Shown here: piece by piece, positions 1 through 11,096 of the stretch
Position numbering within the stretch: the first letter of the stretch is position 1
Layout: every line of letters starts with the position of its first letter
Assembly: GCA_021736505.1 (NCBI GenBank)
Contig: JAIPFU010000045.1
Location: 1-11,096 of the forward strand
Direction of reading: 5' to 3'
DNA from: Spirochaetia bacterium
GTDB lineage: Bacteria > Spirochaetota > Spirochaetia > PWKH01
DNA length: 11,096 nucleotides
Position numbers and translations under genes: made by a program
The notes under the pieces: generated by a model
The model's input: only the letters and a program-made list of their open reading frames with translations
Told to the model about the DNA's origin: nothing
Database searches by the model: none

Positions 1-185
1 ACATAGCAAATAGCTCGTTAAAGCATGACCGCTACATTACTACTGATACGGGGTGGAAGATTATTCTAGGTCGCGGACTTGATATTTTCCAGCGTTATGA
101 AGCTCATGATGCATTTGCATTGGATAACCGTATTCAGGAGTTCAGAGGATGCAAAGAGTGTTCCATTACGTTTATAAAAGAATAA
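1..185 (+). CDS. 3' end of a gene with a C-terminal MIT_C-like (PLD-like) domain
   Basis: The reading frame enters from outside the window (first full codon at base 3) and ends at TAA 183-185, giving about 60 C-terminal residues. Near its start it reads H-D-R-Y-I, then T-G-W-K-I-I-L-G-R-G-L-D-I-F-Q, and after a short spacer F-R-G-C-K-E-C-S-I-T-F. This order (HDR, a GW pair, GRGLD-[IY]-F, then R-x-C and a closing beta strand) is that of the MIT_C domain. I recognise it from the C-terminus of eukaryotic MITD1, a phospholipase-D-like fold without the classical HKD motif. In MITD1 the domain binds membrane; its role in bacteria is not established from this sequence. The N-terminal architecture lies outside the window, so no function can be assigned. 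The gene points toward the catabolic locus and does not look part of it. Confidence 0.7.
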   Translation, partial: IANSSLKHDRYITTDTGWKIILGRGLDIFQRYEAHDAFALDNRIQEFRGCKECSITFIKE

Positions 186-332: not shown

Positions 333-1469
333 TTATTCTAACAGCATATTAATTGCTTTCTGTAAATCGGGTTGCAGACCCTTTGACTGCAGATATGATC
401 CAATTCCAACAATTGTACTTACAAGATTCCTAAGTTCTGTTTGAGGTCTGCTGAAATGACCAATTCTAAAAATCACATTTTTGTATTCCCCAAGGGAACC
501 TGCAATCTGTATTTTAAATGTCTCTTTTAGGTACACAACCAACTCAGCTGAATCAAATACCGAATCAGTTGCAACAGAAGTCAGGCCATGTGTGCAATGC
601 TCATCATCAATAAGTAGTCTCAGCCCCAGTGTTCTTAACGCATTCCTTATTTTTTCGGCTGTCACTTCCAAGTATGTAAAATGGTTAGATACACCTTCTT
701 CATACAGTAACTGAAGACTCTTTCTGTAAGCCTTGATCAAGTTCGTGGGGAGAGTTACAGGGAAAGGATGCCAATCAAACCAGTCATGATAGTATTGGTT
801 CCAGACTCGAAGATCAGTATACCAGCCATGAGATGGATTTTCTTCAAGTGTCTTAATAAGATCTTTTCTTATTATAACAATTGCAAGGCCAGCAGGACAT
901 TCAAAACCTTTTTGTGAAGCTGTGACCACGACATCAATACCTGAGGCATCCATGTTTATTGGTTCAGTCCCGCCACTGGCAATTGCGTCGAGAACAAACA
1001 GCGCTCCATGCTTCTTTGCCAGCTCTGCCACTTTTTCAGCTGGGTTAAGCATACCCGTGCTCGTCTCCGCGTGTACGAGAAGCACAACGTCAAACAACTG
1101 CTCAGATAATGTTTTTTCTACTTCAACTAAATCCACCTTTTCTGCAAAGCCAAATTCGAGAGTTTTAATGTATTCACAATGATTAGATACAACTGACTGC
1201 AATCTGTCTGCAAAAAACCCATTATGAAGGAGCAGACATTTCTTATCCTTACAGAATGTTACGGCTATGGTTTCAAGGCCAAGAGATCCTGACCCGGGCA
1301 TAAGAAATGCAAGTCCATCGGTTCCAAAGAAGGTTGTAGTCCGGTCAACGGCATCCAAATATAGTTCTTTCCATTTGGGACCATAATGTGCAACGTTCTG
1401 GCCATTGAACTCATCAATAATATCCTGGGAGATCTCAACAGGCCCTGGTATCATAAGCAACTTTTCCAT
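333..1469 (-). CDS. Class V PLP-dependent aminotransferase (alanine/serine-glyoxylate aminotransferase-like)
   Basis: A 378-residue fold-type I PLP enzyme, the normal length for the class V aminotransferases that include alanine-glyoxylate, serine-glyoxylate and ureidoglycine-glyoxylate aminotransferases. The N-terminus has the family's L-M-I-P-G-P-V signature. H-A-E-T-S-T-G is at 133-139. D161 in D-A-I-A-S-G-G should pair with the pyridine nitrogen. K187 in S-Q-K-G-F-E-C-P-A-G-L is the expected Schiff-base lysine. R-I-G-H-F-S near 335-340 is the usual C-terminal signature. Two ATG codons are adjacent; the second (1469) is preferred because GAGG then sits five bases upstream, whereas it would be two bases from the first (1472). 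It is the last gene of the transporter operon, 16 bases after the threonine-synthase-like gene. It may move an amino group between a substrate-derived amino acid and a keto acid such as glyoxylate or pyruvate. The donor and acceptor cannot be told from sequence. Confidence 0.88.
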   Translation of the reverse strand: MEKLLMIPGPVEISQDIIDEFNGQNVAHYGPKWKELYLDAVDRTTTFFGTDGLAFLMPGSGSLGLETIAVTFCKDKKCLLLHNGFFADRLQSVVSNHCEYIKTLEFGFAEKVDLVEVEKTLSEQLFDVVLLVHAETSTGMLNPAEKVAELAKKHGALFVLDAIASGGTEPINMDASGIDVVVTASQKGFECPAGLAIVIIRKDLIKTLEENPSHGWYTDLRVWNQYYHDWFDWHPFPVTLPTNLIKAYRKSLQLLYEEGVSNHFTYLEVTAEKIRNALRTLGLRLLIDDEHCTHGLTSVATDSVFDSAELVVYLKETFKIQIAGSLGEYKNVIFRIGHFSRPQTELRNLVSTIVGIGSYLQSKGLQPDLQKAINMLLE

Positions 1470-1485
1470 CATTACCTCGCTGTAT

Positions 1486-2697
1486 TTATGCTTTTAGAAG
1501 TTTTTGGACTTCATCAATAGTTCCTAAAATTGAAAAAATTTCAGTGTGGTTTCCAATAAAAGTTTCGATACTCTTCAGTCCCGTCCCGCTGATAACACAT
1601 ACTGTTGTCTCATCATCACCCACGACCTTATCAGCGCGGGCTTGCAGGTACCCTGCAAAGGAAACACCGCCAGCAGGCTCAGAAAGAACACCATATGTTT
1701 TTGCAAGATGCCTGACTGCCTGAAGCAACTTCTCATCATTTACGGCAAGCGCTTTACCGCCAGCATCCTGCAGACATGCTAAAGCTGCATCCCCATCTGG
1801 AGGATATGGAACTGCAATTGGAAAGGCAATGGTATCGATTTTACCTTTCCACCGTTCCACTGGCTTTGATGATTCAGTAGCTAAGACAAAGGGAGCGCAG
1901 CTGGCACTCTGAACGGGCAGGAATTGAGGTATTTTTGTAGTTATTCCGGCTTCGTACAGTTCTTTAAACCCAAGGTACAATCCAATGAGCAGGCCTCCCC
2001 CGCCTAACGGCAGGGAAACCCAGTCCGGTGCATCAAGCAAATTTTCAACAATCTCGAATGCAATTGTTTTATTCGCTTCAAATTGATATGGATTGACATA
2101 CCCTGCTGTTGAACAATGGTGGTATCCGGCAGTTTCAGTCAACTGGTTGGCTAGTTCCAGACAATCATTCACATCGCCATCAATCAAAATAATCTTTGCC
2201 CCGAAGGCTGCTGCCTGAGAATATCTAAGAACCGGGGTCTCTTTCGGCATAAATACTACACAGTCTAATCCAGCCATAGCTGCATATGCAGCTACGGCTG
2301 GTGCAGTATTTCCATCTGAAGCAACAGTTACCCCTTTTCCTCCAAGCTCCAGTGCCCTGGAAACAGCAAGTGAAGCAGGACGGTCCTTGTATGTTCCGGT
2401 TGGATTGATGTTTTCACTTTTAACGAATACCCGGGAATTCTCTTGTTTCAGTTCCACAAGGGGAGTATCTCCTTCACCAATCGAGGTAATGTACTTTTCA
2501 GAAAGAAGCGGCAGATGAGAGAAGTGTTTCCACATCCCATGCTTTGCTAGAGCATCCAGGTCAAATCTAATTTTTTTTGGATACTCTACCCACAACCTGC
2601 TATCGCATGAGGGACACCTGTATAGGGACTCCTGGGGCTTGTATGTTGCATCACAGTTTCTGCAGTGCAGATTGAATTTTTGTGTTAAATCATTCAT
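1486..2697 (-). CDS. Threonine-synthase-like fold-type II PLP enzyme with N-terminal zinc ribbon
   Basis: A 403-residue member of the threonine synthase / tryptophan synthase beta superfamily. An N-terminal zinc ribbon is formed by C12-x2-C15 and C28-x2-C31. N-P-T-G-T-Y-K-D-R-P (98-107) carries the presumed PLP lysine K104. S-D-G-N-T (127-131) is the substrate-carboxylate loop, L-G-G-G-G-L (231-236) binds the PLP phosphate, and S-E-P-A-G-G (339-344) and S-G-T-G-L-K-S (370-376) complete the pocket. Threonine synthases usually have S-F-K-D-R-G and S-S-G-N at the first two sites, so T-Y-K-D-R-P and S-D-G-N hint at a different or relaxed substrate. The start at 2697 is preferred: it lies 19 bases after the permease stop with GGAG upstream (11-base spacing), while an in-frame ATG at 2751 would add 18 poorly conserved residues overlapping the permease gene. 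Its place behind an importer suggests beta/gamma-elimination or replacement on an imported hydroxy- or phospho-amino acid, not threonine biosynthesis. That is inference. Confidence 0.85.
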   Translation of the reverse strand: MNDLTQKFNLHCRNCDATYKPQESLYRCPSCDSRLWVEYPKKIRFDLDALAKHGMWKHFSHLPLLSEKYITSIGEGDTPLVELKQENSRVFVKSENINPTGTYKDRPASLAVSRALELGGKGVTVASDGNTAPAVAAYAAMAGLDCVVFMPKETPVLRYSQAAAFGAKIILIDGDVNDCLELANQLTETAGYHHCSTAGYVNPYQFEANKTIAFEIVENLLDAPDWVSLPLGGGGLLIGLYLGFKELYEAGITTKIPQFLPVQSASCAPFVLATESSKPVERWKGKIDTIAFPIAVPYPPDGDAALACLQDAGGKALAVNDEKLLQAVRHLAKTYGVLSEPAGGVSFAGYLQARADKVVGDDETTVCVISGTGLKSIETFIGNHTEIFSILGTIDEVQKLLKA

Positions 2698-2716
2698 GTT
2701 ATCATAATCTCCAGTT

Positions 2717-3544
2717 CTATTTGGCAAAGCCCTCAGAGACTCCCCGTACAATATAGTTTCTCAAGAAAATATAAATGGTCATCGGGAAAATCGAGAATAG
2801 CAAGGAAGTTATCATCAATCCCTGCCAATCTGTCCTGAACTGACCAATGAGTGAGGCCACTCCAACCGTACCGACCCAGTTTTCCTGACTTGTTATGAAG
2901 CTGTAAGCATACATATACTCATTCCACGTATCAAAGAATATGATAATCGCAACAGTCACCAACGCAGGGTATATGAGAGGAACATTGATCTTGAAGAATA
3001 GTCCAAATTTACTGACACCATCCATCAGAGCAGCTTCCTCAATTGATTGGGGGATATTCTCAAAGAATCCAATGAGAATCCAGGTTCCAAGTGGCAGAGT
3101 TAAAATGGTATTTGATAGGATCAATGAAAAAAGGCGGTCAATCATACCTGCAGAGGCAAAAATCTCAAACAAGGGAACGACCATGATTGCCGATGGAATC
3201 ATTTGCGTTACGAGAATAACTATTAATAGGTATCTATTAAAGGGAATCTTATATCGTGCAATAGAATAGGCTGCAGGAACCGAAACAACCAAGTTTACGA
3301 CTACAACACCTAAAGAAACAATGAAGGAATTCCCGATCCATCTGAAGATATCAGTTTCCCGCATGATTGTGATAATCTTCTCGAATGAAAAACTTTTAAA
3401 AAAAAAGTTTGGGGGATAAGTCATTGCCTGAGTAGTAGGCTGAAACGATGCAAGGATCATGAAATAAACTGGGAAGATGATCACAGCAGCCATAACTGCG
3501 AGGATAAAGTATAAAAATATTTTGTTTCGTAGATTCTGTTTCAC
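2717..3544 (-). CDS. CUT1-type sugar ABC transporter permease, MalG-like
   Basis: A 275-residue inner-membrane permease with six predicted transmembrane stretches at about 9-32, 70-96, 104-130, 138-161, 187-207 and 241-262. The cytoplasmic EAA loop that docks on the ATPase is visible at 169-190 (E-E-A-A-L-M-D-G and ending in N-V-P-L). The C-terminus R-G-V-S-E-G-F-A-K resembles the R-G-x-x-E-G-A-x-K tail of MalG-type subunits. The start is GTG at 3544, with GGGAGG six bases upstream. The preceding permease ends in TAG whose last base is the first base of this GTG, so the two are translationally coupled and probably made in equal amounts. Together with the adjacent permease and the binding protein it forms an importer; no ATPase gene is present in the window. 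Confidence 0.93.
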   Translation of the reverse strand: MKQNLRNKIFLYFILAVMAAVIIFPVYFMILASFQPTTQAMTYPPNFFFKSFSFEKIITIMRETDIFRWIGNSFIVSLGVVVVNLVVSVPAAYSIARYKIPFNRYLLIVILVTQMIPSAIMVVPLFEIFASAGMIDRLFSLILSNTILTLPLGTWILIGFFENIPQSIEEAALMDGVSKFGLFFKINVPLIYPALVTVAIIIFFDTWNEYMYAYSFITSQENWVGTVGVASLIGQFRTDWQGLMITSLLFSIFPMTIYIFLRNYIVRGVSEGFAK

Positions 3545-4494
3545 TATTTTCCTCCCTTTTTAATCTCAGAGGCCTTGCTGTTTTTCATATAGAAAATGGA
3601 AAATACTCCTACAACAAAAAGAAGAACAATTGCTATAGCCGATGCGTAATTTGAATTGAAAAATCTGAATCCCTGCTGATAGATCAAAATAGGAAGTGTT
3701 TCAGTTGAATGCATAGGTCCACCTTGAGTAAGAAGCCATGTGATAGCAAATCGTTTAAAACTCCATACAATGGTCAACAGAACCAAGAACTTCAGAATAT
3801 TTGAAATGTAAGGAATCGTCACATAATAAAACTGTTTGAAAATATTGGCTCCTTCAAGTTCAGCCGCTTCGTACAATTCCTGTGGGACAGTCTTAAATCC
3901 AGAGAGAATGATTAAGGTATGCATTGGGAAAAGTCTCCAAACAGATACCATGATAACACTAATTAATGAAGTTTGGGTACTTGTAAGCCATCGAAGACCA
4001 TCTGACCCGAAAAAGGAAAGCATGTAATTCACAGCTCCCTGCTGAGGGTTCAACAACCACATCCAAATGATGGCACCAACTACATCAGGTATTGCGTATG
4101 GAAGCGTGAGCAGAGAACTCAGAAATTTTGTCCCGGGTAATTTTGATTTCTCACTGATATCAATAGCCAACGCCGTTATGAAACCTATACACATGATGCC
4201 TACTGTATAGATCGTAACGTATAAAAAGGTGATCAACAGGGAATTTCGAAACAGTGGATCCTCAATAAGACGCTGATAATTTCCAGTTGAAAAATTCCCA
4301 TCAACAACAAAACTACTGATAAGCGCGTATAAAAGAGGATAGATAAACAACAAAATAAGCAACATAACCATCATAATATTAAAGACATATGGTACATGAT
4401 GATCTTTTCTGACGAATTCATGGAGATCTACGATGAATTTTGGAAGGTTGTGAGCGTTTCGTTTAGAGTGCAACTTTGATTCCCCTTTAATCAT
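3544..4494 (-). CDS. CUT1-type sugar ABC transporter permease, MalF-like
   Basis: A 316-residue permease with a roughly 35-residue charged N-terminal cytoplasmic segment and about six membrane spans (near 36-60, 84-111, 122-147, 174-198, 232-255 and 282-303). The EAA loop is at 209-228 (E-A-A-E-L-E-G-A-N ... V-T-I-P). The Q-G-G-P pattern near 257-260, followed by T-E-T-L-P-I-L-I-Y, is typical of MalF/UgpA-type proteins. The ATG at 4494 has no convincing ribosome binding site. An in-frame TTG at 4473 has AAAGGGG eight bases upstream and may be the true start, which would remove seven residues. It overlaps the MalG-like gene by one base. It follows the binding-protein gene by 103 bases that contain a strong hairpin. 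Confidence 0.92.
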   Translation of the reverse strand: MIKGESKLHSKRNAHNLPKFIVDLHEFVRKDHHVPYVFNIMMVMLLILLFIYPLLYALISSFVVDGNFSTGNYQRLIEDPLFRNSLLITFLYVTIYTVGIMCIGFITALAIDISEKSKLPGTKFLSSLLTLPYAIPDVVGAIIWMWLLNPQQGAVNYMLSFFGSDGLRWLTSTQTSLISVIMVSVWRLFPMHTLIILSGFKTVPQELYEAAELEGANIFKQFYYVTIPYISNILKFLVLLTIVWSFKRFAITWLLTQGGPMHSTETLPILIYQQGFRFFNSNYASAIAIVLLFVVGVFSIFYMKNSKASEIKKGGK

Positions 4495-4527
4495 TACAAA
4501 TTTTAAACTTCATTGTAGAACATTCAC

Positions 4528-4562
4528 GTAACCGGTCCAGCAATTTCTGCTGAACCGGTTAC
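4528..4562 (-). promoter_or_regulatory. Intercistronic RNA hairpin between binding-protein and permease genes
   Basis: Bases 4528-4542 and 4548-4562 form a 15-pair stem with a 5-base loop. One pair (4537 with 4553) would be a C-A mismatch in a plus-strand transcript but a G-U wobble in the minus-strand transcript, so the stem is fully paired only in the RNA that is made. No U-tract follows, so it is not a classical intrinsic terminator. It begins about 35 bases after the stop codon of the binding-protein gene. Such hairpins commonly protect the 3' end of the abundant binding-protein message or partly attenuate read-through to the permeases, as between malE and malF. That role here is inference. 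Confidence 0.75.
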
Positions 4563-4597
4563 TAAATGAATACTAGATGTACTTATTAAAGAAAGAT

Positions 4598-5848
4598 CTA
4601 TTTGAATCTCTGCTCAAGATCACTCTTAAGTTTATCCATTGCCTGTTTTGCAGTTACCTCTCCGCTCATAGCGTGAGAGATGCCATCAGCAACCATCTTT
4701 CGAATTTCTGGAGTTTCTGCTTCATAACCCGGCAAAGGTCTTACAACACCATGGGGAGATGCTTTTGCATAGACTTCAAACCACGGATATTCCTCAGAAA
4801 TTGCTTTTGCGGTAAAATTGAGACCCGGAATTGCAGACTCTAAAGCCCATTTTGATGCAACTTCTTCGCTCATTAAGAATTCGATGAATTTTGCAGCTGC
4901 TTCTTTTTTCTCAGTAGATGAGTTTGCATTAATAGAATCCCAGTTAGTCTCAAAAGGTGATGCGGGATCTTCAAAGGGAAGCTTTGCAACAATCAGATTT
5001 TCATACATCTCTTCGTCATTTGCTCTAACAATTCCTGGCCAATAACTTCCATCCATGACCATTCCAGCCTCTCCATTGAGAAACTGTTCTCTCTGAAGTC
5101 CAAACTGCATGCCAGCCGGATGCGATTTCAAGTTATAGATATCAACGAGTAATTCTACACCTTCAACAAAATCAGCATCATTTACAGCAAATTGTCCGTT
5201 TTTAACTATTCGTCCTCCAAATCCTTCAATTACGATCATACCGCTCTGCATGATATAGCTCTGGTTTGCAAATTCTGTTGCATGTGCCAGTCCAGTATAA
5301 CCAGTTGCCTCATAAATGGCATCTGAAACAGCAAGTAGCTCTTCGGGAGTAGTTGGAACATCCATTCCTGTCTTTGCAAGCAGTTCTCCATTGATCATTA
5401 ATGCACCGTAAGGAAAACCTTCACAGATGACTGCTAAGGTGTCACCATCCATAACAGCAAGCGACTGCTGCTCGGGAAACTCATTTTCGTATTTTGACAG
5501 ATCAATAAGGGCGTTCATGGGTTCAAGAAATCCCATCTTCATCCAAGGCACCAGGGTCATGTCTTGCACCCTGAAGACATCAGGTCCCTTTCCAGCCCGA
5601 AACTGAGTTGTCAAAGAGTCATTGTAAGATGAATATGCAATCGGCACGGGTTCTACCTTTATGCCTGGATTTGCAGCTTCAAAATCATCAATAAAACCTT
5701 CTAAGATTACATCTCGTCCACTTTCCAGGAACTGCCAGTTACCCCAGGTAATAGTCACTTCTCCAGAATCTGCTTCTGCCTGTCCTGCTGAATAAAGCGG
5801 CAGTGCACACAAAAGAACAGCTAACAATAGCACTAGATTCTTTTTCAT
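4598..5848 (-). CDS. Extracellular solute-binding protein of a sugar ABC transporter (family 1, CUT1)
   Basis: A 416-residue secreted binding protein. The start at 5848 is chosen because AGGAGG lies six bases upstream and the protein then opens with M-K-K-N followed by a hydrophobic core to about residue 20 and S-A-G-Q-A-E-A, a normal signal peptide. An ATG 63 codons upstream is in frame but would extend across the promoter region. The mature protein shows T-W-G-N-W near 34-38, F-E-A-A-N-P-G-I-K-V-E at 56-66 and G-K-G-P-D-V-F-R-V at 86-94, all typical of family 1 sugar-binding proteins. The C-terminal half has the A-A-x-K-F-I-E-F-L-M-S-E-E-V helix. C14 is followed by more hydrophobic residues and does not make a convincing lipobox, so signal peptidase I processing is more likely. 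It should deliver substrate to the two downstream permeases. Family 1 proteins bind sugars, polyols and derivatives; the ligand is not readable, but the neighbours suggest an amino-sugar acid or similar. Confidence 0.92.
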   Translation of the reverse strand: MKKNLVLLLAVLLCALPLYSAGQAEADSGEVTITWGNWQFLESGRDVILEGFIDDFEAANPGIKVEPVPIAYSSYNDSLTTQFRAGKGPDVFRVQDMTLVPWMKMGFLEPMNALIDLSKYENEFPEQQSLAVMDGDTLAVICEGFPYGALMINGELLAKTGMDVPTTPEELLAVSDAIYEATGYTGLAHATEFANQSYIMQSGMIVIEGFGGRIVKNGQFAVNDADFVEGVELLVDIYNLKSHPAGMQFGLQREQFLNGEAGMVMDGSYWPGIVRANDEEMYENLIVAKLPFEDPASPFETNWDSINANSSTEKKEAAAKFIEFLMSEEVASKWALESAIPGLNFTAKAISEEYPWFEVYAKASPHGVVRPLPGYEAETPEIRKMVADGISHAMSGEVTAKQAMDKLKSDLEQRFK

Positions 5849-5890
5849 AAAATTCCTCCTATTTTTTTTGAAGTAAGTCTCTCGAAATTC

Positions 5891-5919
5891 ATTGTAGCTC
5901 GATATTACCAAATTGTAAA
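5891..5919 (-). promoter_or_regulatory. Sigma-70-type promoter for the transporter operon
   Basis: Read on the minus strand, TTTACA (5919-5914) and TACAAT (5896-5891) are separated by exactly 17 bases; each matches its consensus hexamer at five of six positions. Transcription would start near 5884, leaving a leader of roughly 35 bases with AGGAGG before the ATG at 5848. The -35 box overlaps the left arm of the AT-rich inverted repeat, a suitable position for repression. Found by eye; AT-rich sequence raises the chance of false matches. Confidence 0.6.
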
Positions 5920-5955
5920 TTAAAATTTTAAATTTTAAATTTATAATTTTAATTT
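5917..5955. promoter_or_regulatory. AT-rich inverted repeat in the divergent intergenic region; candidate operator
   Basis: Bases 5917-5927 and 5945-5955 are perfect 11-base inverted copies around a 17-base centre that itself consists of alternating A and T runs. The repeat lies between the -35 boxes of the two divergent promoters and overlaps the one for the transporter operon. It could be a regulator binding site, an intrinsically curved DNA element or an AT-rich UP element. It does not closely match the T-N-G-T-N3-A-C-N-A pattern of FadR-type operators, and A/T-only palindromes arise easily by chance. Confidence 0.4.
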
Positions 5956-5957
5956 CC

Positions 5958-5986
5958 TTTACTTTTTCACTGGTATGTTTTATAGT
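5958..5986 (+). promoter_or_regulatory. Candidate promoter for the regulator-catabolic operon
   Basis: TTTACT (5958-5963, four of six consensus bases) and TATAGT (5981-5986, five of six) are 17 bases apart. An overlapping alternative is an extended -10, TGG then TATGTT at 5971-5979. Either would start transcription at or just beyond 5986. The message would then be leaderless if translation begins at ATG 5988, or have a short leader if it begins at ATG 6048. Confidence 0.45.
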
Positions 5987-5987
5987 C

Positions 5988-6704
5988 ATGACAATGGAAA
6001 AGGAAGTAAACATTAAGATAGATTTGCCAAAATACACGAAGAAAAAAATGAGTAAAGCCGATGTGGTTTATGATTTTCTCCTTGATGGTATCATCAAGGG
6101 TGTATGGTTATCTGGTGACCGTGTTAACGATAAAGAAATAGCAGAACACCTTGGAGTCAATCGATTAGCCGTACGTGAAGCTTTATCCAGACTTGCCCAG
6201 AATGATATTATTGAGCAGGTTCAGTGGAAGGGATACTACATTAGGAACATAACAGAAGAAGATGTTCAGTCGCTGGTCCAAGTCAGGATCGCCCTGGAGA
6301 ATCTAGCGATGTACCTCTTTCTCACAAAAGATGATGATGTGCAGCAAAAATATCTTAAACTCATACAAAAAACCATCGATGATTCCATACAATTCTTGAA
6401 AGAGGGCAATCACGCAAAATATATGGAGATAGACTTTCGATTTCATGAATTAATCTATGAAGCATCAGGGAACAATATGATTGCTAAAGTTATTGGAAAT
6501 ACACGCTTGATAACCAGCATCATGAGAAATCTCTCAATGGGCAAGGAATTTGAACAGGCTGCAATGACTTCTATCCAAGAGCATCAGAATGTTTTCGATG
6601 CATTGAAAGCGAAAGACCTTGAAGGTGCAAAAAAGGCATTGTACCATCATTTAGCCAATACCTTCGTAACCAATATTTTTAAGAATATTCCACATATATA
6701 TTAA
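5988..6704 (+). CDS. GntR-family transcriptional regulator, FadR/FCD subfamily
   Basis: Up to 238 residues. A winged helix-turn-helix spans about 23-87: V-N-D-K-E-I-A-E-H-L-G-V-N-R-L-A-V-R-E-A-L, then the wing ending in K-G-Y-Y-I-R. An all-helical FCD effector domain spans about 92-225. D149, H153, H199 and H221 have the spacing of the metal ligands of FCD proteins (D-x3-H, H, H), so a metal-assisted carboxylate effector is plausible. The recognition helix reads V-N-R-L-A-V-R-E-A-L where most relatives have V-S-R-T-P-V-R-E-A-L. The start is uncertain: ATG 5988, ATG 5994 and ATG 6048 are all in frame, none with a good ribosome binding site, and 6048 would give a 218-residue protein with a compact N-terminus. 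Its position at the divergent promoter, heading the catabolic genes, makes it the likely local regulator of both operons, probably sensing a pathway sugar acid. Confidence 0.9.
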   Translation: MTMEKEVNIKIDLPKYTKKKMSKADVVYDFLLDGIIKGVWLSGDRVNDKEIAEHLGVNRLAVREALSRLAQNDIIEQVQWKGYYIRNITEEDVQSLVQVRIALENLAMYLFLTKDDDVQQKYLKLIQKTIDDSIQFLKEGNHAKYMEIDFRFHELIYEASGNNMIAKVIGNTRLITSIMRNLSMGKEFEQAAMTSIQEHQNVFDALKAKDLEGAKKALYHHLANTFVTNIFKNIPHIY

Positions 6705-6721
6705 CATTTAGGAGTTATACA

Positions 6722-7186
6722 ATGGGAAAGTATGAGGAAAAACTTGCATCTATGGGCTATTGCATCCCACCTATACCCCCGGCTGCCGGATCCTATATTC
6801 CTGCATTAAAAGTAGGAAAATTGGTGTATTGTTCAGGTCAAGGAGCATTTCAGAATGGCAAGCATAAATACACGGGCAGGGTCGGTAGAGAAGTCACGAT
6901 AGATCAGGCAGTCGAAGCGGCACAGATTGCTGCGCTGAATTGCCTCGCAGAAGTCTGCAGTATTACCGGTTCGATTGATAAAATCACTCGCATAGTTCAA
7001 GTCAGAGGATTTGTGAATAGTACTGATAACTTTCACGACCAGCCCAAAGTGATTAACGGTACTTCTGACTTTCTCAAAGAACTGTTTGGAACATCTGGAG
7101 AACACGTCAGAAGCGCTCTTGGAACCAGCAATCTACCAGGGAACATACCTGTTGAAGTTGAAATGATTGTTGAGATAGAGGAATAA
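6722..7186 (+). CDS. RidA/YjgF-family protein (PF14588-like enamine/imine deaminase)
   Basis: A 154-residue protein of the YjgF/YER057c/UK114 superfamily. The length and the N-terminal P-P-I-P-P-A-A-G-S-Y segment (16-25) fit the longer chorismate-mutase-like branch (PF14588), not canonical RidA of about 128 residues. L-V-Y-C-S-G-Q-G (34-41) corresponds to the family's first core strand. R130 in H-V-R-S-A-L-G is placed like the conserved RidA arginine that holds the substrate carboxylate, followed by N-L-P-G-N-I-P-V-E-V-E (137-147). RidA proteins hydrolyse reactive enamine/imine products of PLP enzymes to keto acid and ammonia. TAGGAG lies eight bases before the ATG, and the gene starts 17 bases after the regulator. 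It ends five bases before the SelA-like lyase, whose initiation region overlaps its 3' end, so it probably serves that enzyme. Activity on this pathway's intermediate is inference. Confidence 0.87.
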   Translation: MGKYEEKLASMGYCIPPIPPAAGSYIPALKVGKLVYCSGQGAFQNGKHKYTGRVGREVTIDQAVEAAQIAALNCLAEVCSITGSIDKITRIVQVRGFVNSTDNFHDQPKVINGTSDFLKELFGTSGEHVRSALGTSNLPGNIPVEVEMIVEIEE

Positions 7187-7191
7187 AGTGT

Positions 7192-8328
7192 ATGGAAGCT
7201 AAGAAAGCCATATATGAGAGATTAGGTGTGCAAAAGATTATTAATGCAGCTGGTACTTACACAGTAATTGGGGGTTCCCGCATGTCTGAAAAAACTCTTT
7301 CAGATATTGCAGAAGCATCCCGATCTTTTGTAGAGATACCAAAATTACAGAAGAAAGCTCATGATAGAATAGCTAGACTGACACAAAACGAAGCTGCATA
7401 CATTGCAACTGGAGGAGCTGCTGCTCTATATATAACCGGTGGTTCCTCTGTAGCCCGAAAATATCAGCGAAAAGTAAAATACCTTTCAGAACAGGACATT
7501 CGATCCTCTGAGGTAATCATGTTTCGAGCACATAGAAGCCCTTATGACTGGGGACTTCAGCAGCTTGGAGTAAAAGTTGTTGATGTCGGGTATCCAAATG
7601 TGATCGGCCCGGCAAGCCGTGAAGATCTTGAAGCGGCAATAAATAAGAACACCTGTGCCATATTCTATGCTGCTGGAGGCCCTGGCGGCTGGTTGGCAGA
7701 AGGTTCCCTCAACTTATCTGACACAATAAATATTGCAGATAAACATGATCTGCCGGTTGTTGTTGATGCTGCTGCACAGCTGCCGCCTGTGCAGAACCTC
7801 TGGAATTTCACAAAGATGGGTGCATCTGCTGTGATTTTCAGTGGAGGTAAAGACCTTCGTGGTCCGCAAGCAAGTGGACTTATTGTCGGGAAAAAGGATT
7901 TCATGAGTTATGTGCGCGAAACTGGATTTCCAAATTATGGAATAGGAAGAATGCTCAAAGTAGGGAGAGAAGAGATTGTAGGGCTCACATCAGCAGTCGA
8001 ACAATACGTTTCCCTGGATCACAAGAAGCGTAATGGTTGGGCAGAGAGTGTTGTTGTAACACTCGAAAAGAGTCTGAGCAGCTTTCCTGAAGTGACTGTA
8101 ACACGATCTTTCCCCAATGAAGCTGGACAACCTATGGCTAGGGCAATTATCAGACACAAATCCATGAAAGCTGAGCAAATGATTGAACTGCTCATGGAAG
8201 GAGACCCTGGGATTTTTACCATAAAAGCTGATGATTATTCAATCTTCATTAATCCAATGACACTCGAAGATGATCAGATTGGGTTGATCACTTACAGACT
8301 CGAGAAGATCTTCCGTAAGGTAAAATAG
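7192..8328 (+). CDS. SelA-like PLP enzyme, probable amino-sugar-acid ammonia-lyase (DgaE type)
   Basis: A 378-residue fold-type I PLP protein of the SelA/DgaE superfamily. It opens with R-L-G-V-Q-K-I-I-N-A-A-G-T-Y-T (10-24), the family's usual start. T-G-G-A-A-A-L (73-79) should bind the PLP phosphate. D192 in V-D-A-A-A-Q should contact the pyridine nitrogen. K220 in F-S-G-G-K-D-L-R-G-P-Q is the expected PLP lysine. True selenocysteine synthase is about 460 residues with an N-terminal tRNA-binding domain, absent here, so a SelA label would be misleading. The characterised relative DgaE removes ammonia from D-glucosaminate-6-phosphate to give 2-keto-3-deoxygluconate-6-phosphate. The RidA partner upstream and the aldolase and keto-deoxy-sugar kinase downstream support the same alpha,beta-elimination here. 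A kinase and an ABC importer in place of a PTS suggest an unphosphorylated substrate. A purine-rich AGAGGA about eleven bases before the ATG serves as ribosome binding site. An aldolase- or racemase-type reaction is not excluded. Confidence 0.85.
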   Translation: MEAKKAIYERLGVQKIINAAGTYTVIGGSRMSEKTLSDIAEASRSFVEIPKLQKKAHDRIARLTQNEAAYIATGGAAALYITGGSSVARKYQRKVKYLSEQDIRSSEVIMFRAHRSPYDWGLQQLGVKVVDVGYPNVIGPASREDLEAAINKNTCAIFYAAGGPGGWLAEGSLNLSDTINIADKHDLPVVVDAAAQLPPVQNLWNFTKMGASAVIFSGGKDLRGPQASGLIVGKKDFMSYVRETGFPNYGIGRMLKVGREEIVGLTSAVEQYVSLDHKKRNGWAESVVVTLEKSLSSFPEVTVTRSFPNEAGQPMARAIIRHKSMKAEQMIELLMEGDPGIFTIKADDYSIFINPMTLEDDQIGLITYRLEKIFRKVK

Positions 8329-8337
8329 GAGACTGAT

Positions 8338-9015
8338 ATGATAATGCCCCATGAAATTGAAGAAAAAATTAAAAAAGCTGGTATAATTGCAGTTCTTGTT
8401 ATGCAAGAAGAGAAGCATATACGACCTACAATAGAAGCCCTACTTGAAGGTGGGGTTACAGCTATCGAACTGACACTTCGTACCCATATCGCTATTGAAG
8501 CGATTAAAATCATTCACAGGGAATATCCTCAGATTCTTTTAGGAGCAGGAACAATCTTAACTCCAAGACAGGTTAACGATGTTAAAGAAGCGGGTGCAGA
8601 CTTTGGGGTTACCCCTGGTCTGAATAGAAAAGTCATGAATGAGGCTCTTTCTGCACAACTGCCTTTTGCCCCGGGCGTAGCAACACCAAGTGATATTGAG
8701 TCAGCTTTAGAATATGATTGTCGAATTTTAAAATTTTTCCCAGCTGAACCGATGGGAGGACTACCCTACTTGAAAAGCATGCATGCCCCTTATGCTCATC
8801 TGGGTCTTTCATTCATTCCATTGGGTGGGATTAATCAGCAGAATCTTCCACTTTATGCAAAAGAATCATCAATTTGTGGGATTGGGGGAAGCTGGATTGC
8901 TTCAAAAAAACTTATTTCTGAACAGCGTTGGGATAAAATTACTGAACAGGCACAAACTGCCATGACTTCATTTTTTAAGGAGGGAAAAAATGGGAGAGAT
9001 AGTCACATTCGGTGA
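8338..9015 (+). CDS. KDPG/KHG aldolase family protein (Eda-like class I aldolase)
   Basis: A 225-residue Schiff-base aldolase of the 2-keto-3-deoxy-6-phosphogluconate / 4-hydroxy-2-oxoglutarate family (usually about 205-215 residues). A-I-E-L-T-L-R-T (42-49) supplies E44, the general acid/base, and R48. G-A-G-T-I (69-73), P-G at 93-94, P-G-V-A-T-P-S-D-I (112-120) and the Schiff-base lysine K132 in L-K-F-F-P-A-E (131-137) follow in the normal order. P-L-G-G-I (161-165) stands where P-T-G-G-I is usual, a small change in the phosphate/substrate loop. It should split a 2-keto-3-deoxy-phospho-sugar acid into pyruvate and a triose phosphate in the cytoplasm. It belongs to the Eda family, not the separate DgaF aldolase family, so this pathway is assembled differently from the Salmonella Dga operon. 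AGGAG lies six bases before the ATG at 8338, nine bases after the lyase. Its last 26 bases overlap the kinase gene. Confidence 0.9.
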   Translation: MIMPHEIEEKIKKAGIIAVLVMQEEKHIRPTIEALLEGGVTAIELTLRTHIAIEAIKIIHREYPQILLGAGTILTPRQVNDVKEAGADFGVTPGLNRKVMNEALSAQLPFAPGVATPSDIESALEYDCRILKFFPAEPMGGLPYLKSMHAPYAHLGLSFIPLGGINQQNLPLYAKESSICGIGGSWIASKKLISEQRWDKITEQAQTAMTSFFKEGKNGRDSHIR

Positions 9016-10084
9016 AATCATGGGAAGAATTGAGATGGAAAACAATTATCGGTTCAACCAGGCTCTACCCGGAAAAGTCAGGATCACATATGCAGGTGCT
9101 GAAGCTAACGTTGCCTCTTCCCTATCACACATGGGCAGGGCAACCCAATATGTTACTTCTCTGCCGGATAATCCGATCTCAAAATCATGTGTGGCATATT
9201 TGCATAGTCTGAACGTAGGAACCGATCACCTTCAATTCACTCCCTTTGGAAGATTCGGACTTTACTTTTTAGAAACCGGTGCAAACCAGCGTCCGAGTAA
9301 TATAATATATGATCGAGACTATTCCAGTATCAGCGAACAGGATCCAAATTCATATAACTGGGATATCATTTTCTCACAAGCAAAGTGGTTTCATATCAGT
9401 GGGATAACACCAGCCTTATCAAAAAATGCTGCTGTTGCCGCAATTGAAAGCGTAAAAGCTGCAAAAAAGCATGAAGTTAAAGTTTCCTGTGATCTGAATT
9501 TTAGAAAAAAACTTTGGAATTGGGATAAGAACCTTTCAAGAAAAGAACTTGCACGAGAAACTATGAGAGAAATACTTCTGAATGTCGATATTCTCATTGG
9601 TAATGAAGAGGATGCATCTGACGTTTTGGATATTCACCCCAAGAATGTCGATGTCAATTTAGGGAAACTTGATTTTTCTGCATACCATGAGGTGGCTAAA
9701 AAAGTTTCTGAACAATTTCACAATATTCAACTTGTTGCTTTTACGCTTAGAGAGAGCATCTCTGCCTCACACAATAATTGGGGAGCTATGATTTACGATA
9801 CTGCTTCAGATTTCCACTATGTTTCTCCAACAACCTCTGGCTATTATGCTCCGTATGAAATACGAAATATTATTGATCGCGTTGGAGGGGGTGATTCCTT
9901 TTCAGCAGGTTTGATTTATGCCTTGACTGACAAGACATTCAATAACGATCTCCAGCAAGTACTCGACTATGCTACAGCTGCTTCATGTTTATGTCACTCC
10001 ATACATGGAGATATAAACTATTCAACTCCAGAAGAAATCAAACGTCTTATGCAGGGAAATGCTTCAGGACGAGTTGTCCGCTGA
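8990..10084 (+). CDS. PfkB-family sugar kinase, probable 2-keto-3-deoxygluconate kinase
   Basis: A 364-residue ribokinase-fold enzyme. The N-terminal substrate region has G-A-E-A-N-V-A (36-42). C-D-L-N-F-R-K-K-L-W (167-176) and G-N-E-E-D-A (204-209) are hallmarks of the KdgK branch. The ATP/anion-hole signature D-R-V-G-G-G-D-S-F-S-A-G-L (296-308) carries the catalytic base D302. The length, GGGDS in place of the commoner GAGDS, and the C-terminal S-G-R-V-V-R match a long KdgK-like subgroup I recall from clostridia and spirochaetes, so I do not treat them as anomalies. It should phosphorylate the 2-keto-3-deoxy acid made by the SelA-like lyase, feeding the aldolase. The strong ribosome binding site AAGGAGGG sits five bases before the ATG, inside the 3' end of the aldolase gene in another frame (26-base overlap), indicating translational coupling. 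Substrate stereochemistry (gluconate, galactonate or other) is not readable. Confidence 0.9.
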   Translation: MGEIVTFGEIMGRIEMENNYRFNQALPGKVRITYAGAEANVASSLSHMGRATQYVTSLPDNPISKSCVAYLHSLNVGTDHLQFTPFGRFGLYFLETGANQRPSNIIYDRDYSSISEQDPNSYNWDIIFSQAKWFHISGITPALSKNAAVAAIESVKAAKKHEVKVSCDLNFRKKLWNWDKNLSRKELARETMREILLNVDILIGNEEDASDVLDIHPKNVDVNLGKLDFSAYHEVAKKVSEQFHNIQLVAFTLRESISASHNNWGAMIYDTASDFHYVSPTTSGYYAPYEIRNIIDRVGGGDSFSAGLIYALTDKTFNNDLQQVLDYATAASCLCHSIHGDINYSTPEEIKRLMQGNASGRVVR

Positions 10085-10189: not shown

Positions 10190-11096
10190 ATTATTAATGG
10201 TTCATCCTGGACCAATCCTGAAAACTTTGTTGGAAATGGTCCTTTTACCCTGGTTCAATGGGCTCCGCAGGAATTCATGTCAGTTGTTCCCAATATGAAA
10301 CCTACTGGGATGCTGAAAATGTCTACCTGGACAGCGTTATCTACCTGCCCATCGATGACAACAACACAGCTCACAACATGTACCTGAATGGTGAGGCAAG
10401 CTGGAACAACACGGTTCCGAGAGATCAGATGGATGCGGTTAAGCTGCGGGATGATTATCACAATGCTCCGTACCTGGGAACCTACTACTATCTGTTTGAA
10501 ACTACGACACCGCCGATTGACGATGTTCGTGTACGGAAAGCACTCTCCATGGCTATTGACCGACAGGCGCTGGTTGACTTGATTACTAAGAGCGGACAGA
10601 TTCCTGCTTACGCTATGGTACCGGAAATGGCCGGCTATCCTCAGAACTACTTCTTTGAAGAGGATGTTATGGAAGCGCAGGATCTTCTGGCTGATGCGGG
10701 ATATCCCAACGGTGCAGGCTGGCCGGAAGATGTAGAAATTCTCTACAACACCTCTGAATCTCACAGAAAGATCGGTGAGTTCATTCAGCAGCAGTGGAAA
10801 GAGAATCTTGGTATTGATGTGAAACTGACAAACCAGGAATGGGGTACCTACCTGAAAACCAGACGTCAGCATGAGTTTGATATTGCCCGTGCCGGCTGGA
10901 TTGGTGACTATCCTGATCCTAACACCTTCCTGGATATGTTCCTCACCGGCGGAGCTAGAAATGACGGTCAGTACAGCAACCCTGAATTTGATAAGAGAAT
11001 ACGGCAGGCAGCAACAATGGAACCTGGTGAAGAACGTTTTGAGGTCTTGAGAGAGGCTGAAGAATACTTCATCGGTGAAGACCAGGCTGTTATGCC
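10190..11096 (+). pseudogene. 5'-truncated, frameshifted oligopeptide-binding protein (OppA family) fragment
   Basis: Two frames together read as the middle and C-terminal part of a family 5 (OppA/DppA) extracellular binding protein. The first frame, open after a TAA at 10187-10189, gives S-S-W-T-N-P-E-N-F-V-G-N-G-P-F-T-L-V-Q-W up to V-V-P-N at 10283-10294. The second continues from G-A-A / E-T-Y-W-D-A at 10297 to the window edge. It includes P-I-D-D-V-R-V-R-K-A-L-S-M-A-I-D-R and G-W-I-G-D-Y-P-D-P-N-T-F-L-D, both classic for the family. Removing two bases (the extra AT near 10293-10296) would join the frames as V-P-N-E-T-Y-W-D-A. The N-terminal roughly 200 residues and the signal peptide are missing, no promoter or ribosome binding site is evident, and the coding sequence is richer in G and C than the genes to its left. 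It is a decayed remnant, a gene cut by insertion or rearrangement, or an assembly artefact. An ATG at 10258 opens the second frame but lacks initiation signals. Confidence 0.8.

What the first reader, a model, noticed from the sequence alone, without database searches (positions are those of the whole stretch)
333..10084. Candidate ABC-fed pathway for an amino-sugar acid: SelA-like lyase, RidA, KdgK-type kinase and Eda-type aldolase with two extra PLP enzymes
Every step of a plausible route is present: import, ammonia elimination, imine hydrolysis, phosphorylation, aldol cleavage and a local FCD regulator. The characterised D-glucosaminate route (Dga) uses a PTS importer, DgaE lyase and DgaF aldolase. 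Here an ABC importer, a PfkB kinase and an Eda-family aldolase replace the PTS and DgaF, implying lyase action before phosphorylation. The threonine-synthase-like enzyme and class V aminotransferase have no place in the known route, so the substrate may be different or more complex.
Basis: partly seen in the sequence, partly recalled or inferred. Interest (0 to 1): 0.72.

Follow-up and report, generated by a model that had tools for sequence, protein, structure and literature searches.

The report
Amino-sugar-acid breakdown gene cluster
This bacterial gene cluster appears to import an amino-sugar acid, strip its ammonia before adding phosphate, and split it into pyruvate and a sugar phosphate, much like known routes but with a different lyase and two extra vitamin-B6 enzymes whose job is still open.

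Summary
The gene content is confirmed: a sugar-type ABC importer, a threonine-synthase-like PLP enzyme (PALP), a class V aminotransferase and, divergently, GntR/FCD, Rid (PF14588), a SelA-like enzyme, Eda and a KDG-kinase-like gene. SelA-like + Rid + Eda + kinase recur within 10 kb in 7 of 80 related loci; an Acetomicrobium MAG locus (L002) has importer, PALP, SelA-like, Rid, Eda and kinase together. The SelA-like enzyme is related to DgaE but fails its tests: scores below both curated cut-offs, His162/163 absent, phosphate-site Arg346 replaced by Met. This fits ammonia loss before phosphorylation, but deaminase-then-kinase with an essential RidA is already shown for oxidised chitin sugar (PMC9537276), so the route shape is not new. 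The PALP does not look like a threonine synthase in its phosphate-site residues. It travels with an aminotransferase in 3 of 5 other PALP stretches, with SelA-like in only 1 of 5, so PALP plus aminotransferase may be a module of its own. Substrate and both extra roles are inference; my boldest reading is one lyase per C2 epimer. New variant of a known kind.

The parts
333..1472 (-). class V aminotransferase (AT5), AGXT/PhnW-like, 379 aa
   Evidence: PF00266 77.6 bits; TIGR03301 162 bits, below its cut-off 360.8; best PDB match 1vjo
1486..2697 (-). threonine-synthase-like fold type II PLP enzyme (PALP) with an N-terminal segment holding two Cys pairs, 403 aa
   Evidence: PF00291 244.7 bits; TIGR00260 180.3 bits, above cut-off 167.1; loop PLGGGGLL and Gln at the Thermus Arg160 position
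2717..3544 (-). ABC permease, MalG/GlcU-like, GTG start
   Evidence: PF00528 56.3 bits; 69% identical to L002 copy
3544..4494 (-). ABC permease, UgpA/MalF-like
   Evidence: PF00528 53.7 bits; 60% identical to L002 copy
4598..5848 (-). solute-binding protein, family 1, 416 aa
   Evidence: PF01547 95.3 bits; 60% identical to L002 copy; aggagg before ATG at 5848
5917..5955 (.). AT-rich inverted repeat between the divergent operons, possible operator (weak, low complexity)
   Evidence: 19-nt arms, 95% complementary
5988..6704 (+). GntR/FCD regulator
   Evidence: PF07729 73.2 and PF00392 42 bits
6722..7186 (+). Rid-superfamily protein, PF14588 type
   Evidence: PF14588 72.3 bits, cut-off 35; PDB 3d01 and PA0814
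7192..8328 (+). SelA-like, DgaE-related PLP enzyme, probable ammonia-lyase
   Evidence: PF03841 34.6 bits; TIGR01437 208.5 bits, below cut-off 385.3; PDB 7lc0 128 bits; PLP Lys220 kept, His162/163 and Arg332/346 positions changed
8338..9015 (+). KDPG/KHG aldolase (Eda)
   Evidence: PF01081 208.2 bits; TIGR01182 216 bits, above cut-off 156; PDB 1eua 146 bits
8990..10084 (+). PfkB kinase, like 2-keto-3-deoxygluconate kinase; overlaps the end of Eda by 26 nt
   Evidence: PF00294 107.3 bits; PDB 2afb, named 2-keto-3-deoxygluconate kinase, 259.7 bits

Best explanation
A catabolic cluster for an unphosphorylated 2-amino-2-deoxy sugar acid (D-glucosaminate or a close relative). The ABC importer, served by an ATPase encoded elsewhere, brings it in; the SelA-like enzyme removes water and ammonia, giving an enamine/imine; Rid helps hydrolyse it to a 2-keto-3-deoxy sugar acid; the PfkB kinase phosphorylates it; Eda splits it to pyruvate and glyceraldehyde-3-phosphate; GntR/FCD senses substrate or an intermediate. 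The PALP most likely dehydrates (or racemises) an L-configured hydroxy-amino acid, perhaps the 2S epimer, and the aminotransferase moves an amino group of the imported compound or a product. Shown: gene content, recurrence, residue differences. Inferred: every reaction and the substrate; the PALP and aminotransferase roles are the weakest part.
For: Gene content. Near-complete set in L002. SelA-like + Rid + Eda + kinase in 7 of 80 loci. Some SelA-like loci hold a zinc-type dehydrogenase and an SMP-30 lactonase (L015), glucose 1-dehydrogenase, Rid and PIG-L deacetylase (L093, a distant relative), or an Amidohydro_3 gene plus Rid in the same stretch (13 of 80); this is consistent with a free amino-aldonate, not proof. 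Arg346 of DgaE is Arg in 0 of 202 rows and Met in 185, and is kept in a PTS-linked C. difficile enzyme. Kinase nearest 2afb. Deaminase then KDG kinase shown for GlcN1A in PMC9537276.
Against: No biochemistry; substrate not identified. No deacylase, dehydrogenase or lactonase was found among the window genes, so the source of the free acid is unexplained. Arg301 is kept in the window. The loss of His163 does not track Rid: R. etli and Aminobacter enzymes keep both histidines and lie next to RidA. A PTS-type C. difficile DgaE cluster also has a sugar kinase, so the kinase alone does not prove the order. SelA-like contexts vary: a dihydroorotase-like amidohydrolase lies in 39 of 80 stretches, Eda plus kinase in only 9. 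PALP is found without SelA-like in 4 of 5 other fetched PALP stretches (L091, L100, L101, L102 without; L002 with), although all are bounded stretches.
Confidence: 0.53

Rival explanations
1. Two modules meet here: importer, PALP and aminotransferase degrade an imported hydroxy-amino acid or sugar-amino-acid conjugate by transamination and elimination, and SelA-like, Rid, Eda and kinase handle an amino-sugar acid, or finish the sugar part.
For: An aminotransferase accompanies PALP in 3 of 5 other PALP stretches (class I in L002 and, directly adjacent and 461 bits to the L002 one, in L091; class V in L100), SelA-like in 1 of 5. L112 has a window-type binding protein (35%), permeases, a class I aminotransferase and a DapA-like aldolase (by eye) without SelA-like. 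In G102 an importer ortholog and the SelA-like gene lie on different contigs.
Against: In L002 importer, PALP and SelA-like are consecutive on one strand; SelA and PALP homologs have equal contig lengths in two further cases; L100 joins PALP and aminotransferase to Eda and kinase.
Confidence: 0.27
2. The SelA-like enzyme acts on another D-amino acid (for example a D-3-hydroxy amino acid), and kinase and Eda serve a second substrate.
For: SelA-like genes with Amidohydro_3 or dihydroorotase-like amidohydrolase genes; OngC also takes D-serine and D-threonine (PMC9537276).
Against: Eda and the kinase directly follow SelA-like in the window and occur with it and Rid in 7 of 80 loci.
Confidence: 0.12
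3. Classical phosphorylated Dga route: a kinase acts first and the SelA-like enzyme is a DgaE.
For: Relation to 7lc0; Arg301 kept; a kinase is also present in a C. difficile DgaE cluster.
Against: 164.1 against 600 and 208.5 against 385.3 bits; no PTS gene among the window genes; His162/163, Arg332 and Arg346 changed.
Confidence: 0.06

Closest known systems
ong oxidative chitin pathway, Pseudoalteromonas (PMC9537276, passages read)
   Same: deamination of unphosphorylated GlcN1A to KDG, then KdgK, with an essential RidA protein; the aldolase step is only hypothesised there
   Different: OngC is fold type III, not SelA-like; starts from GlcNAc1A with deacetylase OngB; SSS symporter; RpiR-type regulator; no PALP or aminotransferase named in the cluster
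Dga pathway, Salmonella (PMC9529869, passages read)
   Same: SelA-like PLP ammonia-lyase and a KDPG aldolase
   Different: PTS import with phosphorylation first; DgaF aldolase; lyase with His162/163 and Arg301/332/346
Predicted haloarchaeal glucosamine route (PMC12343721, passages read; compare L093)
   Same: DgaE-like protein, Rid-type gene, Entner-Doudoroff ending
   Different: glucose dehydrogenase makes glucosaminate in the cell; an unknown kinase is proposed before the lyase; prediction only
Rhizobial ABC + RidA + DgaE-like cluster (R. etli p42e, L107)
   Same: ABC importer, RidA and DgaE-like gene adjacent; GntR regulators near
   Different: other importer genes with an ATPase; lyase keeps His162/163 and Arg332; no Eda, kinase or PALP annotated in the 15 kb shown

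Membership tests
[quoted passage not shown]
   164.1 bits
[quoted passage not shown]
   Lys220 aligns with chain position 213 of 7lc0; Lys in 202 of 202 rows; the paper numbers the lysine 217
[quoted passage not shown]
   Gly, Gly in window; His at 163 in 0 and at 162 in 2 of 202 rows; gapped loop, so alignment is approximate
[quoted passage not shown]
   Arg, Ile, Met in window; one of three kept; a Lys lies next to the second position
[quoted passage not shown]
   ABC genes instead
DgaE subfamily TIGR01437 | score above curated cut-off 385.3 | tested here: not met
   208.5 bits
Threonine synthase (TIGR00260) | score above curated cut-off 167.1 | tested here: met
   180.3 bits
Threonine synthase (TIGR00260) | substrate-phosphate residues Asn154, Ser155, Arg160 and loop GNAG (roles recalled for the Thermus enzyme, no paper found) | tested here: not met
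   Ser or Gly (by alignment), Tyr, Gln, and loop GGGG; among the 31 best PALP homologs 30 have Gln and 1 Glu at 160, 22 of 31 have GGGG
ong pathway | fold type III deaminase OngC and deacetylase OngB | tested here: not met
   no such family among the ten window genes
ong pathway | KDG kinase and a Rid-family protein | tested here: met
   by similarity only
KDPG/KHG aldolase Eda (TIGR01182) | score above cut-off; Schiff-base lysine in KFFPAE | tested here: met
   216 against 156.05 bits; motif conserved; motif role recalled
2-keto-3-deoxygluconate kinase | curated equivalog NF052444, cut-off 400 | tested here: not met
   43.5 bits; 2afb, so named by its depositors, matches with 260 bits, so I call the gene KDG-kinase-like only
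2-amino-2-deoxyaldonate ammonia-lyase | activity on free D-glucosaminate | not testable with these tools
   needs an assay

The most novel reading that the evidence does not exclude
A two-lyase amino-sugar-acid pathway: a SelA-like fold type I enzyme dehydrates and deaminates the 2R epimer and a dehydratase-like 'threonine synthase' (fold type II), working with a transaminase linked to the importer, takes the 2S epimer, both feeding one Rid protein and one kinase/aldolase pair. That would be a new activity for this PALP subfamily, which curated models now call threonine synthase.
Probability: 0.23. Interest if true: 0.6.

Novelty: new variant of a known kind. Interest (0 to 1): 0.45.

Why it matters
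It would extend unphosphorylated amino-sugar-acid breakdown from marine chitin degraders to ABC-fed lineages such as Synergistota, and it suggests that a curated 'threonine synthase' call (TIGR00260) and generic 'selenium transferase' names can hide sugar-acid enzymes. It offers a small, defined set of proteins for testing what PF14588 Rid proteins do in a pathway.

Tried and rejected
1. 'Loss of His163 makes Rid necessary': attractive, because H163A DgaE releases the enamine (PMC9529869, passages), but R. etli and Aminobacter DgaE-like enzymes keep both histidines and have RidA next door. Not used as evidence.

2. PALP as ordinary threonine synthase: judged unlikely on the phosphate-site residues and loop and on its place in the importer operon, although it passes the curated score cut-off.

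3. Beta-hydroxyaspartate cycle (BhcA/BhcB): AT5 146.4 against a cut-off of 650, PALP 61.5 against 550. Rejected.

4. Phosphonate use (PhnW-like AT, PhnR-like regulator): 162.4 against 360.8 and 87.5 against 271.5 bits, no other phosphonate gene among the ten. Rejected.

5. RNA families: none at the gathering threshold. Promoter-like sites 19 found against 25.8 in shuffles, terminator-like 8 against 8.4: no information.

6. The window's own genome: none held. Binding-protein ligand: nearest solved binding proteins are mixed sugar binders, no guide. No structure was predicted.
Full report
WHAT IS THERE. The window holds two divergent gene sets. Minus strand, in order of transcription: solute-binding protein (5848-4598), two permeases of the sugar-importer (CUT1, recalled label) type, a threonine-synthase-like PLP enzyme (PALP, 2697-1486) and a class V aminotransferase (AT5, 1472-333). 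Plus strand: GntR/FCD regulator, a PF14588 Rid protein, a SelA-like enzyme, Eda, and a PfkB kinase whose start overlaps the end of Eda by 26 bases. No importer ATPase was found among the window ORFs. An AT-rich inverted repeat (5917-5955) lies between the operons; its low complexity makes it a weak operator candidate. No whole genome is held for the window, so its organism is unknown; AT5 relatives include three entries that their sources name Spirochaetota or Spirochaetes, at 47-52% identity.

DOES IT RECUR. One scan of genome contigs with an alignment of 29 SelA-like proteins gave 80 loci (143 stretches encoded a relative, the best 80 were kept). Within the stretches held (up to 10 kb each side), Rid-family genes occur in 29 of 80, Eda in 15, kinases like the window's in 9, Eda plus kinase in 9, Eda plus kinase plus Rid in 7 (L001, L002, L017, L018, L032, L036, L037), a window-like binding protein with permeases in 2 (L002, L037), a PALP in 2, of which only L002 is a close relative (415 against 57 bits). 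Only 33 of 80 loci have at least 5 kb on both sides, so these are lower bounds. All 7 full sets are among L001-L040; 0 of L041-L080 (mostly Chloroflexota) have one.

L002, an Acetomicrobium hydrogeniformans MAG, carries Eda, kinase, a class I aminotransferase, binding protein, two permeases, PALP, SelA-like, an ABC ATPase and Rid on one strand. Identities to the window: binding protein 60%, permeases 60 and 69%, PALP 48%, SelA-like 56%, Rid 50%, kinase 44%, Eda 25%. The importer is the best kept part; Eda is not a close ortholog. L100, from the genome that also holds L015 (Bacillota), has permeases, PALP, Eda, kinase and a class V aminotransferase (28% to AT5) but no SelA-like gene on its 8.3 kb contig. 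L037, a Spirochaetales MAG, has GntR/FCD, SelA-like, a RidA-like gene, another binding protein with permeases, an MR/MLE-like gene, Eda and kinase.

PALP WITHOUT SELA. Of five other PALP-bearing stretches fetched, one has a SelA-like gene (L002); L091, L100, L101 and L102 have none. An aminotransferase is present in three (L002, L091, L100) and Rid in three (L002, L101, L102). In L091 the gene directly before PALP is a class I aminotransferase with 461 bits to that of L002; by eye its other neighbours are a branched-chain-amino-acid-type importer and an IclR regulator. L112 has a binding protein (35% to the window's), permeases and a class I aminotransferase without PALP or SelA-like. So PALP goes with an aminotransferase more than with SelA, which favours a separate PALP-aminotransferase module more than I first thought.

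Homolog lists for SelA, PALP and AT5 (120, 120 and 118 of 120 values used) share longest-contig lengths. Besides the window, at 3 kb or more: SelA/PALP 12383 and 18995; PALP/AT5 3617, 8935, 83775, and 10923 with different sources; SelA/AT5 24148, and 4770 with different sources. A jitter control expects 0.30, 0.31 and 0.44. Equal length as sign of the same contig is inference. In the tree of 90 rows the window group, the L002/P0023 group and P0025 fall in three separate well-supported groups, so the SelA-PALP link is not one recent inheritance, though an old link with losses is possible.

HOW RARE. PALP relatives: 2 of 185 genomes in the phylum of L002 at E 1e-75, 1 of 392 sampled in the phylum of L037 at 1e-75, 1 of 299 sampled in the phylum of L015 at 1e-80. 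SelA-like at 1e-85: 2 of 383 in the phylum of L037, both already known loci. Binding protein at 1e-60: 2 of 183 (62 and 55%) and 1 of 392 (35%). In G102, which by coordinates appears to be the genome of L007, the importer is followed by an ABC ATPase, with no PALP in the contig part held, and SelA-like lies on another contig.

THE SELA-LIKE ENZYME. [quoted passage not shown] PMC9529869 (passages) names His163 as proton donor, His162 nearby, Arg301/332/346 around the docked phosphate and Arg226 near the carboxylate. In an alignment of 202 relatives (window, 119 proteins, 82 loci; some duplicates) the PLP lysine is in 202 of 202, His163 in 0, His162 in 2, Arg346 in 0 (Met in 185), Arg332 in 1, Arg301 in 130. 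The window has Gly, Gly, Lys (226), Arg (301), Ile (332), Met (346). A PTS-linked C. difficile enzyme keeps both histidines and all three phosphate arginines; rhizobial ABC-linked ones keep all but Arg346. In this small set loss of Arg346 goes with non-PTS clusters; loss of His163 does not track Rid. Context in other loci (dehydrogenase and SMP-30 lactonase in L015; glucose 1-dehydrogenase, Rid and PIG-L in L093; an Amidohydro_3 gene plus Rid in 13 of 80) suits a free amino-aldonate but would also suit other N-acyl-D-amino acids. The C. difficile cluster has a sugar kinase too, so the kinase alone does not fix the order.

THE PALP AND THE AMINOTRANSFERASE. The PALP passes the curated threonine synthase cut-off (180.3 against 167.1), but at positions that I recall as binding the substrate phosphate in the Thermus enzyme it has Ser or Gly (by alignment), Tyr and Gln instead of Asn154, Ser155 and Arg160, and the cofactor loop reads GGGG rather than GNAG. 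Of the 31 best homologs 30 have Gln and 1 Glu at 160; 22 have GGGG, the rest GGGS, GGAG or GGAS; P0141 and P0147, the two that may share contigs with SelA, are GGAG and GGGS. A tetraglycine loop is, from general knowledge, typical of serine/threonine dehydratases and racemases. Relatives in L101 and L102 (38% identity) lie with M20-type hydrolases and Rid genes. My inference is a stereochemical split: SelA-like for 2R and PALP for 2S acids; that M20 enzymes prefer L-amino acids is recalled. A transamination step is likely, since aminotransferases of two classes accompany PALP or the importer, but I cannot place it.

AGAINST THE KNOWN. Deamination of GlcN1A to KDG, then KDG kinase, with an essential RidA protein, is established for the ong cluster, the aldolase step being hypothesised there (PMC9537276, passages); OngC is fold type III. 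A haloarchaeal DgaE-like route is proposed in PMC12343721 (passages). An older Pseudomonas glucosaminate dehydratase (EC 4.3.1.9) is recalled, not read. Listings of searches (substrate and pathway terms; threonine synthase, aminotransferase, KDG kinase, RidA, glucosaminate together) showed no paper on this gene set; the library holds open-licence papers only.

VERDICT. New variant of a known kind; interest 0.45.

Noticed in passing
window 10190-11096 (+): Family 5 (oligopeptide-type) solute-binding protein gene, cut by the window end, lacking its N-terminal part and apparently with its reading frame broken near 10300: looks like a remnant.
   Followed up: partly
window 3-185 (+): Tail of an open frame that matches MIT_C (PF16565, phospholipase-D-like domain at the C-terminus of MIT proteins), 54.7 bits against cut-off 25.
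   Followed up: partly
L020-L023, L025, L026, L028, L029, L034: Nine Treponema, Spirochaetaceae and Endomicrobia loci with an Amidohydro_3 gene (D-aminoacylase-like by recall), SelA-like and RidA close together, an ong-like layout with the SelA-like enzyme in the OngC place.
   Followed up: partly
many of L041-L080: The SelA-like gene lies about 1.2 kb from a dihydroorotase-like amidohydrolase gene in many Chloroflexota and Trueperaceae loci; probably a different pathway.
   Followed up: no
L101:9481-12521: Two PALP genes of this family in tandem behind a Rid gene and an M20 hydrolase, with a polar-amino-acid-type ABC importer (by eye).
   Followed up: no
L091:9004-11629 (-): Class I aminotransferase directly before a PALP, close to the L002 aminotransferase (461 bits), in a cluster without SelA-like, Eda or kinase hits.
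   Followed up: partly
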